A DNA stretch of 64,000 nt from Desulfococcus multivorans. GTDB taxonomy: Bacteria; Desulfobacterota; Desulfobacteria; Desulfobacterales; Desulfococcaceae. Below the pieces are notes generated by a model that was not told where the DNA came from, made no database searches, and saw only the letters and a program-made list of their open reading frames with translations. This document shows positions 10,302 to 22,109 of this stretch, piece by piece. Both the position numbers and the translations under genes were made by a program. Location: assembly GCF_001854245.1 (NCBI RefSeq), contig NZ_CP015381.1:3445001-3509000 (forward strand), given 5' to 3'. Every line of letters begins with the position of its first letter. Within the stretch, counting starts at the first letter, position 1.

Positions 10302-12185
10302 TCACGTCTCCATCGTGTCAAACCGGCAGGAAAGCAGCACCATGTCGTCCTCGAACACCGTCTTGATTTTGTAGGGCAGCGTTTTGAAAAGATTGATCAT
10401 GCCCCTGTTATGGGGGGCGGTATAGGCAAACAGCCCGGCCAGACCGTTTTCCCGGGCAGCCTCGGCCAGTTTCCGCATGAGGAGTTTGCCGAGACCCCTG
10501 CCCTGGTATGCCTTGTTCACCGTAAAGGCAACCTCCGCCATGTTGCTCGCCTCATTCAGCAGGTATTCCCCCATGGCGATGACCTTCCCGAACCCGAACT
10601 CTCCCACCACCGCCACAATGGTGAGATCCTTCACATAGTCCACCTCGAGCATCTCCTCGAGATCGTCCCTCACGAAACTGTGCTTCTCGTGGAAAAAACG
10701 GGAGACGACGTCATCGGGTTCGAGATTGTAAAAATGCTCCTGGATGCGGCGTTCATCCACCGGTTTGGCGGGACGGATGACGACGGTCTCCCCGTTGATC
10801 TCCCGGACCTCCTCGAGCTTCACCGGGTAGACGCCGTGAATCGAGTCGCTGAGGGTCCTGTCCTCGCTCAACAGTCCCATCTCCTTGGCTTCGAAGAAGA
10901 GCTCCTCCCGGTACTCGGGGTGGGCGATGCTGATCATGGCCAGGGCCCGCTCCTGAAGGCTTTTCCCGAAAAGGTTGACGGCACCGTATTCCGTCACCAC
11001 ATAGTGGACGTCTCCCCTGGGGACCACCACGGCGGTATCGCCCAGGCTGGGCACGACGCGGCTGGTTTGATCTTCTCCCGACCCGGAGGTCGAGGCGAAC
11101 ATGAGGATCGATTTGCCGCCCTCGGCCAGCGCCGCCCCGCGGATAAAATCGTTGATGCCGGTGACGCCCGTGAAATAGGTTCGCGGCAGGGCATCCGCGG
11201 CTACCTGACCGGTGAGGTCCATGGCCAGGGCCACGTTCATGGAGACCATCCGATGATGTCGGGCGATGATGGTGGGGTCGTTGACATAGTCGGACGGCCT
11301 GAAATCGACCGAAGGGTTGTCGTGAAGGAACTCGTAGAGGACCTCGCCGCCGATGGCGGCACTGGCCACCATTTTACCCTCGTTGAAGCCCTTCCGCCGA
11401 TTGGTGATGACCCCCCGCGAAAAGAGGTGCATCATATCCTGGGTCAGGTATTGGCTGTGGACCCCCAGATCGTTCTTGTCGGCCAACGCCAGCAGCGTGG
11501 CCTTGGATGTGGCGCCGAGGCCGATCTGGATGGTGGACCCGTCGTCGACGAGGCGGGCGATGAGCCGGCCGATGGTGTTGGCCGCTTCGGTTTCCGGGAG
11601 GGGCTCCGTCGCCAGCAGTTCCTCCTCGTGCTCGACGATGACGTCCACATCATCCACGTGGATGAAGCTCTGACCCAGAACCCGGGGCATGCGCGGGTTG
11701 ACCTGGGCGATGACCAGATCGGCGGAAAAGGCGGCGGACAGGGTCACGTCCACGGAAACGCCGAGGCTCATCCAGCCGAAATCGTCGGGAGGGGTCACCT
11801 GAATCAGGGCCGCGTGGATCGGGAGCTGTCGGCTCTTGAAAAGCCGGGGAATCGCGGAAAGATTGACGGGCGTGATGAAACGCTTGTTCATGGCCAGCCC
11901 CCTGGCCTTCCCGGATCCCAGATAAAAGGAACGGATATTGATGCTCCGGCTTTTGGTTTTGTCGGCGATAAGCCCCAGCGGCGTCCGTTCCAGGGAAAGC
12001 AGACGGACGATCTCGAGGTCCGTGAAGACCGATGATGCCTCCGCAAGCGTCTTGACCAGGTACTGCGGCTCACCGCAGGACGATCCGATAAACACCCGCT
12101 GGCCGGGCCGGATCATTTTGACGGCCTCCTTGGCCGTTCGCTGTTTCTCGACAAAATCATCCGCCCAATAGCTCGTCTTGGCCAT
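10302..12185 (-). CDS. acetyl-CoA hydrolase/CoA-transferase fused to a C-terminal GNAT acetyltransferase domain
   Basis: This is a 627-aa fusion. Residues 1 to about 450 are a family I CoA-transferase/acetyl-CoA hydrolase of the 4-hydroxybutyrate CoA-transferase type (RPGQRVFIGSSCGEP near the start, VVTEYGAVNLFGKSLQERA around the expected catalytic glutamate). From about 470 to the end is a GNAT N-acetyltransferase domain whose acetyl-CoA loop is QGRGLG (561-566). The first domain moves CoA between acetyl-CoA and carboxylates. The second may acetylate a protein lysine or a small molecule; its target is unknown. The gene is divergent from the acs operon across a 628-base region and sits before the RACo-like gene, suggesting a role in acetate/acetyl-CoA exchange. 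AAAGGAGGG precedes the ATG. Confidence 0.87.
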   Translation of the reverse strand: MAKTSYWADDFVEKQRTAKEAVKMIRPGQRVFIGSSCGEPQYLVKTLAEASSVFTDLEIVRLLSLERTPLGLIADKTKSRSINIRSFYLGSGKARGLAMNKRFITPVNLSAIPRLFKSRQLPIHAALIQVTPPDDFGWMSLGVSVDVTLSAAFSADLVIAQVNPRMPRVLGQSFIHVDDVDVIVEHEEELLATEPLPETEAANTIGRLIARLVDDGSTIQIGLGATSKATLLALADKNDLGVHSQYLTQDMMHLFSRGVITNRRKGFNEGKMVASAAIGGEVLYEFLHDNPSVDFRPSDYVNDPTIIARHHRMVSMNVALAMDLTGQVAADALPRTYFTGVTGINDFIRGAALAEGGKSILMFASTSGSGEDQTSRVVPSLGDTAVVVPRGDVHYVVTEYGAVNLFGKSLQERALAMISIAHPEYREELFFEAKEMGLLSEDRTLSDSIHGVYPVKLEEVREINGETVVIRPAKPVDERRIQEHFYNLEPDDVVSRFFHEKHSFVRDDLEEMLEVDYVKDLTIVAVVGEFGFGKVIAMGEYLLNEASNMAEVAFTVNKAYQGRGLGKLLMRKLAEAARENGLAGLFAYTAPHNRGMINLFKTLPYKIKTVFEDDMVLLSCRFDTMET

Positions 12186-12545: not shown

Positions 12546-12574
12546 TTGACAACGTGTACGCGGTTAAATATAGT
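12546..12574 (+). promoter_or_regulatory. sigma70-type promoter of the acs cluster
   Basis: A perfect TTGACA (12546-12551) is separated by 17 bases from TATAGT (12569-12574). This is the best promoter match I see in the window. It would start transcription near 12581 and give a leader of about 230 bases before acsD. Confidence 0.6.
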
Positions 12575-12709
12575 GAATATTTCAGATTTACAATGATCAT
12601 TCAATCATTGGAAAATACGTCGGCAACTGGACGACGATTCAGAAAATCAACCTGGTGAGATTGGATAACGTGCGCGTAAAATTCAGCAATATGAACATAA
12701 TTCTGCTTC

Positions 12710-12761
12710 AAAAAGGGGGGTGATATGCTTTCGGGGGGTAAGCATACTGCCCCCTTTTTTT
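12710..12761 (+). terminator. terminator-like hairpin inside the acs leader (possible attenuator)
   Basis: A ten-base-pair lower stem (AAAAAGGGGG at 12710-12719 with CCCCCTTTTT at 12750-12759) carries a seven-base-pair upper stem (TATGCTT at 12724-12730 with AAGCATA at 12740-12746) and ends in seven T residues. It lies downstream of the promoter and 52 bases before the acsD start, with no plus-strand gene upstream to terminate. The loop contains a second GGGGGG run that could compete for the CCCCC arm, so alternative folds are possible. Conditional termination is an inference. Confidence 0.55.
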
Positions 12762-12813
12762 GTGTGTTTTCCACTAAAACCAATTCGTGAGAACATCCAG
12801 AGGAGGTACAACA

Positions 12814-14403
12814 TTGGCTTTTGAATTTTTCAAAGAATCTTATTCCGGAGCTGTAAGGAAGGTTACGCTGGGACAAGGCGACAAGGCTGTCACCGTCGGC
12901 GGCCAGACATGCTACCCGTTTTATCAGTTCGAAGGCGAGATGCCCAACAAGCCCAAGATCGCCATGGAGGTCTGGGACATGAGACCCACGGACTGGGCGG
13001 AGTCGGCACTCAAACCTTTCGAGGATGTCCTCGACGACCCGGCGGCCTGGGCGAAAAAGTGCGTTGACACCTACGGAGCGGAGATGATCGCCCTTCAGCT
13101 CAGAAGCACCGACCCCAACGACAAGGACGCGAGCCCGGCCGATGCCGCCGCGACGGTCAAAAAGGTTCTGGCCGCCGTCGACGTTCCCGTAATCGTCTGG
13201 GGAACCGCAAGCCCCAAGAAGGACGAAGAGGTCCTCAAGAAAATCGCCGAGGACTGCCAGGGCAAAAACCTGATCATCGGACCGGTGGAGGACAAGAATC
13301 ACAAGGGTATCGGCGCCGCGGCCATGGGCTTCGGTCACACCGTCATCTCGTCTTCACCCATCGACGTCAATATCGCCAAACAGATCAACATCCTCCTTGA
13401 AAACCTGGGCATGCCCATGGACCGCGTGATCGTGGACCCCACCACCGGCGGCCTCGGATACGGCATGGAATACAGCTACTCCGTCATGGAACGCCTGAGA
13501 ATGGCGGCCATGAACCAGGGCGACGACAAACTCCAGTACCCCGTCATCAACAACCTGGGCTTTGAAATCTGGAAATCCAAGGAAGCCAAGCTCAAGGCTG
13601 ATGAAGCCCCCACCCTGGGCGACCCGGAACGCCGCGGCATCCTCATGGAGGCCGTAGGCGCCGTGAGCTATCTTCTGGCCGGCTCCGACATTCTGATCAT
13701 GCGCCACCCCGAATCCGTCCGCCTGGTCAAGGCCTTCATCGATCTCGGTATCGCCGGCGGATCGGCCAAGACGGTCGCTCCCATCGAAAAGAAACTGCCG
13801 GCCGCGGAGATCGACCTGGCGGCCCTGGCCCCCGCGCCGGATCTGACGATCACCGAAGAGAAAAAGGCGGAGCCCGCTAAAAAAGCCGCTCCCAAGGCGG
13901 CCGAAGCCCCCAAGGAAGCGCCCAAGCCCGCCGCCCCGGCAGCCGCCGCCCCCGCGGCACCCGAAGCCGCCAAACCGGCGCCCGCTCCCGCAGCAGCAGC
14001 GGCTCCCGCGGTAGATCCGGCCGTCCAGGCCAAACTCGAGGCCGAGGCCAAGGCTAAAGCCGAAGCTGAAGCCAAGGCCAAACTCGAGGCCGAGGCCAAG
14101 GCCAAAGCCGACGCCGAAGCCAGGGCCAAAGCCGATGCCGAAGCCAGGGCCAAAGCGGATGCCGAAGCCAAGGCCAAAGCCGATGCCGAAGCCAGGGCGG
14201 CCGAAGTGGCCAAACGGGAATCCGAGGAGAACGCCATCCGTCAGGCCAGAGCCAAGGAGCGCGAGGAGCGTTTGAAGAAGATGGCGGAAGAGCGCGCCGG
14301 CAAGGTTGCGGCAGGGGCCGGGATGACCCCCGCGGGAATCCAGAAGAGCGAACTGGACAAACTGGTCGAAAAGATTCAATGGGTCAACGGAAGACTTTAT
14401 TAG
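12814..14403 (+). CDS. acsD: corrinoid iron-sulfur protein small subunit (CODH/ACS delta) with long repeat tail
   Basis: The 529-aa subunit carries cobalamin and the methyl group between methyl-tetrahydrofolate and acetyl-CoA synthase, as a heterodimer with AcsC. Residues 1 to about 330 form the conserved TIM-barrel part (AMEVWDMRPTDW, VIVDPTTGGLGYGMEYSYSVMER). Then come a Pro/Ala-rich linker (about 348-400) and a charged alanine-rich helix (about 402-495) built partly from 8-residue ADAEARAK units, before a short conserved-looking C-terminus. Bacterial AcsD is usually a little over 300 aa, so the tail is an addition. I place the start at TTG 12814, because AGGAGG (12801-12806) sits seven bases before it and the family N-terminus AFEFFKE follows. 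The frame extends nine codons further upstream. First gene of the acs cluster. Confidence 0.92.
   Translation: MAFEFFKESYSGAVRKVTLGQGDKAVTVGGQTCYPFYQFEGEMPNKPKIAMEVWDMRPTDWAESALKPFEDVLDDPAAWAKKCVDTYGAEMIALQLRSTDPNDKDASPADAAATVKKVLAAVDVPVIVWGTASPKKDEEVLKKIAEDCQGKNLIIGPVEDKNHKGIGAAAMGFGHTVISSSPIDVNIAKQINILLENLGMPMDRVIVDPTTGGLGYGMEYSYSVMERLRMAAMNQGDDKLQYPVINNLGFEIWKSKEAKLKADEAPTLGDPERRGILMEAVGAVSYLLAGSDILIMRHPESVRLVKAFIDLGIAGGSAKTVAPIEKKLPAAEIDLAALAPAPDLTITEEKKAEPAKKAAPKAAEAPKEAPKPAAPAAAAPAAPEAAKPAPAPAAAAAPAVDPAVQAKLEAEAKAKAEAEAKAKLEAEAKAKADAEARAKADAEARAKADAEAKAKADAEARAAEVAKRESEENAIRQARAKEREERLKKMAEERAGKVAAGAGMTPAGIQKSELDKLVEKIQWVNGRLY
14107..14202 (+). repeat. 24-base tandem repeat within acsD
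   Basis: About four copies of a 24-base unit encoding A-D-A-E-A-R/K-A-K (gcc gat gcc gaa gcc agg gcc aaa, with single-base differences) lie in a longer Ala/Lys/Glu-rich coding stretch starting near 14029. The near-identity of the units suggests recent expansion by slippage. Confidence 0.75.
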
Positions 14404-21488: not shown

Positions 21489-22109
21489 ATGGCACGAATG
21501 GATGATTATCTCAATGCGAGGAAAATCGCCGTCGATACGCTTGCGGCACAGCCCTTTGAAGCGATCAAGGGGCGCTCCGGCCTGGAATCCCCGGCTGAAA
21601 ACGAACTCAGGATCCCTTTTCTGAATCGGGTCTACCGGGTCACATACCCCGAGTTCCGGTTCGAGGACGCAACCGGCGACGGCGCGGAGATTCCGGTTCA
21701 GGAACAGGTTCTGATCCTCCACTACCTGACCGGGGGGAGCACCGCCGTCACGGAGGAGTTCATCGCATACCGGGAGATCGAGGGTGCGGCCTTTTATTTT
21801 TCCTCCTTCGTGAAACGGGCCGTCGATCCCCTTAAAAAGGTTTTCGGCCGCAACGCCGACAGTCTGGGGAAACCCGCGTCGATTCTGGGCGGCACCCCCA
21901 TCAAGGCGGGCGATGCCGGATTCGAGTTTCATGTCCTGCCGCACATCCCTGTCCAGCTGATTCTGTGGGAGGGCGACGAGGAGTTCGAACCTGAAGCCAA
22001 CATCCTCTTCAGGGAAAACATCGCGGACTTCCTTTCACCCGAAGACGTCGCCTGGTATGCCGGAATGCTGGTCTACCGACTGATTTCCCTGTTTTATCAA
22101 CACCAATGA
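21489..22109 (+). CDS. DUF3786 protein
   Basis: The 206-aa protein resembles DUF3786 in length and wording (NELRIPFLNRVYRVTYPE, EQVLILHYLTGG, LPHIPVQLILWEGDEEF, CISCA-free C-terminus ending ...DVAWYAGMLVYRLISLF). It is soluble, with no signal peptide or metal-binding cysteines. The family's function is unknown. It occurs in anaerobes, often near corrinoid or acetyl-CoA synthase genes, as here, where it follows acsE after a terminator. A folding or cofactor-handling role is a guess. AAGGAAC lies before ATG 21489. It is followed after 55 bases by the dikinase-like gene on the same strand. Confidence 0.7.
   Translation: MARMDDYLNARKIAVDTLAAQPFEAIKGRSGLESPAENELRIPFLNRVYRVTYPEFRFEDATGDGAEIPVQEQVLILHYLTGGSTAVTEEFIAYREIEGAAFYFSSFVKRAVDPLKKVFGRNADSLGKPASILGGTPIKAGDAGFEFHVLPHIPVQLILWEGDEEFEPEANILFRENIADFLSPEDVAWYAGMLVYRLISLFYQHQ

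What the first reader, a model, noticed from the sequence alone, without database searches (positions are those of the whole stretch)
12546..12813. acs leader with a strong promoter followed by a built-in terminator hairpin
The acs cluster has a near-consensus promoter, a leader of about 230 bases, and a full terminator-like hairpin with a T-tract 52 bases before acsD. No plus-strand gene precedes it, so the hairpin looks like a conditional attenuator or the expression platform of an undescribed riboswitch. A second G-run in its loop could swap partners with the first. A tiny frame (12691-12723) ends within the first G-run, so translation-coupled attenuation is another option.
Basis: partly seen in the sequence, partly recalled or inferred. 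Interest (0 to 1): 0.62.

Follow-up and report, generated by a model that had tools for sequence, protein, structure and literature searches.

The report
Ribosome-binding leader before acetyl-CoA synthase genes
The RNA leader in front of the genes for carbon monoxide dehydrogenase/acetyl-CoA synthase carries a strong ribosome-binding sequence that, across an order of sulfate reducers, is kept while nearby start codons are avoided, and in this organism's family it sits beside a built-in transcription stop, which suggests that ribosome docking itself protects or switches the message.

Summary
In detail: an 11/12 promoter, a leader of about 230 nt, and a strong terminator-like hairpin before acsD. 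No plus-strand gene precedes it. I compared 139 acsD leaders from the same order (Desulfobacterales). The first G-run of the hairpin is this lineage's version of a conserved element, GAAAGG(A/G)GG, about 100-140 nt upstream of acsD (exact in 78/139 leaders; 0.4 expected). In 34-53 leaders a small covarying hairpin (AUCUAC-CGNN-GUAGAU) precedes it. The element is an extended Shine-Dalgarno sequence, yet AUG/GUG/UUG are depleted 3-11 nt after it (11 seen, 49±6 expected), while CUG is not. So ribosomes probably bind there and initiation is selected against, as in the STAB-SD mRNA stabiliser of Bacillus cry3A. Outside the order none of 20 readable leaders has it. The terminator is conserved only in the window's family (6/6, with different sequences) and scattered relatives. 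This window and its sister species are exceptions: an AUG follows the element and opens a 21-codon frame through the hairpin. Best reading: a ribosome-docking leader (stabiliser), coupled in this family to a terminator that ribosome binding would block. Conservation and start-codon avoidance are shown; docking, stabilisation and antitermination are inferred. No Rfam family or aptamer was found.

The parts
12546..12574 (+). sigma-70-type promoter TTGACA-17-TATAGT (acs operon)
   Evidence: 11/12 match; same in sister species; TTGACA-like promoters lie upstream of most leaders examined
12592..12611 (+). 5'-proximal hairpin CAATGATcattcAATCATTG
   Evidence: the sister has ATGAC..GTCAT where the window has ATGAT..ATCAT, one compensatory change; only two species, so weak
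12710..12720 (+). SD-like element AAAAAGGGGGG, homologue of the order-wide GAAAGG(A/G)GG element; also 5' arm of hairpin A
   Evidence: position and sequence match to 94/139 acsD leaders; start codons depleted 3-11 nt downstream in those leaders
12710..12760 (+). hairpin A: element pairs with CCCCCUUUUU, inner stem AUGCUU/AAGCAU
   Evidence: -26.6 kcal/mol, z -4.8; conserved in sister, -33.7
12733..12755 (+). hairpin B: G-run 2 pairs with the C-run, intrinsic-terminator-like
   Evidence: -13.4 kcal/mol; corresponds in place to the terminators of the other family members
12755..12761 (+). T7 tract
   Evidence: sequence
12725..12790 (+). 21-codon upstream frame MLSGGKHTAPFFCVFSTKTNS*, ATG 4 nt after G-run 1, runs through the hairpin
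   Evidence: the sister has a 22-codon frame at the same ATG but in a shifted frame, so the peptide is not conserved
   Evidence: present; sister MNIILVKKGG*; no counterpart in other family members
12800..12807 (+). acsD Shine-Dalgarno sequence GAGGAGGT
   Evidence: sequence; UUG start 12814 conserved in nearly all relatives
12814..14403 (+). acsD, first gene of acsD-cooS-acsB-acsC-acsE
   Evidence: NCBIfam

Best explanation
The acsD leader is a ribosome-docking leader. Its core is an extended Shine-Dalgarno sequence (order consensus GAAAGG(A/G)GG, here AAAAGGGGGG at 12711-12720) that pairs with the 16S rRNA tail; in most of the order it has no start codon at productive spacing. A docked 30S subunit would act as a STAB-SD-type 5' stabiliser, shielding the long acs mRNA from 5' decay, helped by the covarying hairpin P1 where present. 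In the window's family the element is followed at 12-18 nt by an intrinsic-terminator-like hairpin, and in this species the element is itself one of two possible 5' arms. Docking (or initiation at ATG 12725) would cover both 5' arms and let RNA polymerase read through; an undocked leader would terminate near 12761. Shown: the sequence conservation, P1 covariation, start-codon avoidance, terminator-like hairpins in the family, and RNase J and RNase E/G genes. Inferred: 30S binding, stabilisation, ribosome-gated termination.
For: Element exact in 78/139 leaders against 0.4 expected, 0 on the reverse strand. Its one freely variable base is A or G only (43/51), both able to pair with the U of CCUCCUUUC. 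Start codons 3-11 nt downstream: 11 against 49.0±5.7 in dinucleotide shuffles and 48.5 in the adjacent control stretch; ATG 3 vs 14.7, GTG 1 vs 14.2, TTG 7 vs 19.6, but CTG 12 vs 11.5; holds with one leader per similarity cluster, 5.1 vs 13.7 of 34. No general internal pairing partner for the element (7-bp runs 14 vs 11.4; z = 0), so an external partner is likely. P1: 5 pairs and 20 cells with double changes, 0/500 shuffles, sliding lowers it. Specific to acsD leaders, one strong hit per genome, absent elsewhere in the phylum. Terminator-like hairpins in 26/139 leaders against 3.7 expected, clustered between element and acsD SD; at or near threshold in all 6 family members. RNase J 589 bits, RNase E/G. 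STAB-SD precedent: PMC4113751, PMC3997798.
Against: No transcript, toeprint or half-life data. The window is an atypical member: no P1, weak model score (E = 7.9 for the genome), and an ATG at initiation distance, which contradicts 'non-initiating' here. 45 of 139 leaders, including whole families, lack the element. The own 16S tail could not be read: rRNA is not found in the held genome. STAB-SD is established in Gram-positive bacteria; a review notes that leader-bound ribosomes protect at a distance much better there than in E. coli. Terminator and stabiliser roles are separable, and either could be wrong.
Confidence: 0.5

Rival explanations
1. Translation-coupled attenuator: in Desulfococcus the element is a true SD for the frame at ATG 12725; translating ribosomes run through the hairpin and prevent termination.
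For: All three leaders with ATG 3-11 nt after the element (window, sister, L006) belong to the same family of six, which also has terminators; SD spacing is near ideal.
Against: Peptides differ and an indel shifts the frame between the sister species; three family members have no ATG there; no control codons; the rest of the order avoids starts.
Confidence: 0.17
2. Ligand-binding riboswitch or protein-binding attenuator with P1 as sensor and the hairpin or SD region as expression platform.
For: P1 covaries; the motif is specific to acsD; 25/94 element-bearing leaders have a 5-6 nt anti-SD upstream of the acsD SD against 2/45 without; a further conserved block UUAACCGGUA lies near the SD.
Against: No Rfam match; conserved core is only a 7-bp hairpin and 9 nt; the window lacks P1 and the anti-SD; the anti-SD contrast is confounded by relatedness and weak within leaders.
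Confidence: 0.13
3. Constitutive partial terminator or processing/stability hairpin: the U-tract partly follows from pairing with the A-rich SD element, and the hairpin merely sequesters that element or protects the RNA.
For: In L002, L003, L012, L032, L041 and L059 the 3' arm is simply the complement of the element.
Against: In L005, L006 and L047 a separate G-rich arm forms the hairpin followed by T-tracts, so the U-tract is not just a by-product.
Confidence: 0.15
4. Target of a trans-acting small RNA or of CsrA.
For: Purine-rich element; CCUCC-type sRNAs are known (own knowledge, no tool result).
Against: Half the elements have no GGA, which CsrA needs; neither predicts avoidance of start codons exactly at initiation spacing.
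Confidence: 0.05

Closest known systems
STAB-SD 5' mRNA stabiliser of Bacillus thuringiensis cry3A (PMC4113751)
   Same: SD-like sequence near -129 that does not direct initiation; the GAAAGG(A/G)GG element lies at a similar distance (median ~123 nt); RNase J is present.
   Different: Other phylum; conserved across an order upstream of one operon; preceded by a covarying hairpin; in this family coupled to a terminator; in the window itself a start codon follows it. Function not shown.
Intrinsic-terminator attenuators (leader-peptide or riboswitch controlled)
   Same: Promoter, long leader, terminator-like hairpin before the first gene, two mutually exclusive pairings.
   Different: No conserved leader peptide and no aptamer; the conserved part is a ribosome-binding sequence; both alternative folds end at the U-tract.
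Ribosome standby sites (own knowledge)
   Same: 30S docks upstream of the real start.
   Different: Standby sites are usually close to a structured SD and not built on a strong SD; here the docking site is about 90-130 nt upstream.

Membership tests
STAB-SD 5' stabiliser | strong complementarity to the 16S 3' tail | tested here: met
   GAAAGG(A/G)GG is the complement of CCUCCUUUC with A-U or G-U at the variable base; the tail is taken from general knowledge, own 16S not readable
STAB-SD 5' stabiliser | does not direct translation initiation | tested here: inconclusive
   start codons strongly depleted across the order, but the window and its sister have ATG at 4-5 nt
STAB-SD 5' stabiliser | near the 5' end of a stable (processed) transcript | not testable with these tools
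   no RNA ends available
STAB-SD 5' stabiliser | 30S binding blocks a 5'-3' exonuclease (RNase J) | not testable with these tools
   RNase J gene present in the genome; binding and decay not testable
intrinsic terminator | GC-rich hairpin directly followed by a U-tract, above chance | tested here: met
known riboswitch or RNA family (Rfam 15) | covariance model match | tested here: not met
leader-peptide attenuator | conserved translated short ORF overlapping the switch | tested here: not met
   no conserved uORF at or across the element; sister frames differ

The most novel reading that the evidence does not exclude
A ribosome-gated terminator: a Shine-Dalgarno sequence that needs no start codon serves as antiterminator, 30S occupancy of the leader deciding whether the acs operon is transcribed, so that CODH/ACS expression is tied directly to ribosome availability; in the rest of the order the same docking site acts as an mRNA stabiliser.
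Probability: 0.25. Interest if true: 0.8.

Novelty: new variant of a known kind. Interest (0 to 1): 0.6.

Why it matters
CODH/ACS is the central enzyme of acetate oxidation and CO2 fixation in these sulfate reducers, and I found no leader element described for it. A conserved SD under selection against initiation would be evolutionary evidence, outside Gram-positive bacteria, that bacteria use ribosome docking as a structural or regulatory device. It gives a defined set of leaders on which to test STAB-SD action and ribosome-dependent antitermination.

Tried and rejected
Rfam at gathering score and at loose E-values: nothing credible. Leader DNA elsewhere in the genome: unique. uORF after the element as the general rule: rejected, starts are depleted. 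uORF ending at the element: 34/94, no conserved peptide. Internal partner for the element: no enrichment. Anti-SD/anti-anti-SD switch: pairing with the acsD SD in 25/94 element-bearing leaders vs 2/45 without, but absent in the window and weak against shuffles; kept only as a rival. P1 loop (UACCG) kissing with CGGUA near the SD: noted, not consistent across families. Weak model hits outside acs are ordinary SDs without P1. CsrA: half the elements have no GGA. Literature: no paper found on a CODH/ACS leader element.

Full report
Observation. The promoter TTGACA-17-TATAGT (12546-12574, 11/12) and the hairpin with T7 tract 52 nt before acsD are as described. Hairpin A (12710-12760) folds at -26.6 kcal/mol, z -4.8, better than all 200 shuffles; pairing of G-run 2 with the C-run gives a conventional terminator-like hairpin B at -13.4. 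The neighbouring gene is divergent, so the hairpin does not end an upstream plus-strand gene. The downstream genes are acsD, CODH catalytic subunit, acsB, acsC and an acsE-like methyltransferase.

Comparison with relatives. acsD was located in 58 and then 291 genomes of the order, and leaders were taken from them; 139 distinct leaders were kept. Named relatives show that the order is Desulfobacterales and that the nearest relative is an uncultured Desulfococcus. I believe from memory that the 4,455,399-base genome is Desulfococcus multivorans; no tool confirmed this. What is conserved across the order is not the hairpin but GAAAGG(A/G)GG, median about 123 nt before acsD: 78 exact matches against 0.4 expected and 0 on the reverse strand; 94 with at most one mismatch against 7.8. 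The window's first G-run is this element. In 34 high-scoring cases a hairpin (A/T)ATCTAC-CGNN-GTAGAT(A/T) lies 18-40 nt upstream of it; on 53 model-aligned leaders it shows 5 pairs and 20 cells with double changes, 0 of 500 shuffles reaching that, four G-U cells among otherwise A-U or G-C pairs, and lower scores when the partner is slid.

Specificity. A covariance model of the hairpin plus element (R1) gives essentially one strong hit per genome in the order (E 1e-5 to 1e-17). The ones checked lie directly before acsD, including genomes not used to build the model. Across 395 genomes of the phylum no comparably strong hit appears outside the order. None of 20 readable acsD leaders from outside the order has the element at the expected place; one more has a mismatched copy inside an upstream gene. 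Weak hits elsewhere are ordinary Shine-Dalgarno sequences without the hairpin. The window scores only weakly at the right place (12674-12726, E 7.9): it has lost, or never had, P1. Rfam has nothing.

What the element does. It is a perfect extended Shine-Dalgarno sequence, its variable base being A or G only. Yet ATG, GTG and TTG are depleted exactly at initiation spacing, 3-11 nt downstream: 11 seen against 49.0±5.7 in shuffles and 48.5 in the adjacent control stretch. CTG, a poor start codon, is not depleted (12 against 11.5). Collapsing similar leaders to 34 clusters leaves 5.1 against 13.7 expected. The simplest reading is that ribosomes recognise the element and that initiation there is harmful. 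Internal base-pairing partners are not enriched, which argues against a general riboswitch-type switching strand. The documented counterpart is STAB-SD of cry3A: an SD-like sequence near -129 that does not direct initiation and whose 30S complex blocks RNase J1 (PMC4113751; PMC3997798). The genome encodes RNase J and two RNase E/G proteins. Its 16S tail could not be checked because no rRNA is found in the held sequence.

The terminator. Terminator-like hairpins occur in 26/139 leaders at -10 kcal/mol or better against 3.7 expected, mostly between the element and the acsD SD. All six members of the window's family have one 12-18 nt after the element, with different sequences; one of them scores only -7.8. 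In some leaders the element itself is the 5' arm (window, sister, L012, L032, L041, L059); in L005, L006 and L047 a separate G-rich arm is used. Ribosome binding at 12711-12720 would cover G-run 1 and probably G-run 2 and so block both folds. This gives a ribosome-gated attenuator, which is inference.

The exceptions. The only three ATG codons at initiation spacing in 94 leaders are in this family: window, sister and L006. In the window ATG 12725 opens a 21-codon frame through the hairpin to 12790. The sister has a frame of similar length but a different peptide because of an indel. The named frame 12691-12723 is similar in the sister (MNIILLQKGG and MNIILVKKGG) but has no counterpart in other family members.

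Open points. Some families lack the element, often where the promoter lies closer to acsD. A further block, (A)CCUCAAUCAUUAACCGGUA, 20-45 nt before acsD, is shared by many leaders and can pair with the acsD SD in some; its role is unexplained. UGA follows the element at offset 1-2 in 37/94 leaders, also unexplained.

Noticed in passing
window 13860-14320 (acsD C-terminus): AcsD here has a ~200-residue Ala/Lys/Glu-rich TolA-like C-terminal extension (529 aa). Frames of 510-590 aa are usual in this order, while many AcsD frames elsewhere in the phylum are only 310-330 aa.
   Followed up: no
acsD start codon, 12814 and relatives: acsD starts with UUG in nearly all leaders of the order, GUG in a few and AUG in very few: a conserved weak start codon.
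   Followed up: partly
20-45 nt before acsD in many relatives (e.g. L095, L106, L108, L128): Conserved block (A)CCUCAAUCAUUAACCGGUA; its ACCUC can pair with the acsD SD and its CGGUA is complementary to the P1 loop UACCG. Role unknown.
   Followed up: partly
1-2 nt after GAAAGGRGG in 37 of 94 leaders; window 12721-12723: UGA is strongly enriched directly after the element, although no conserved upstream frame ends there.
   Followed up: partly
window 10302-12185, minus strand: CoA-transferase-like protein (butyryl-CoA:acetate CoA-transferase family) with a C-terminal GNAT acetyltransferase-like part, divergent from acs.
   Followed up: no
window 21489-22109, plus strand: 206-aa frame after the acsE-like gene with no NCBIfam match.
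   Followed up: no
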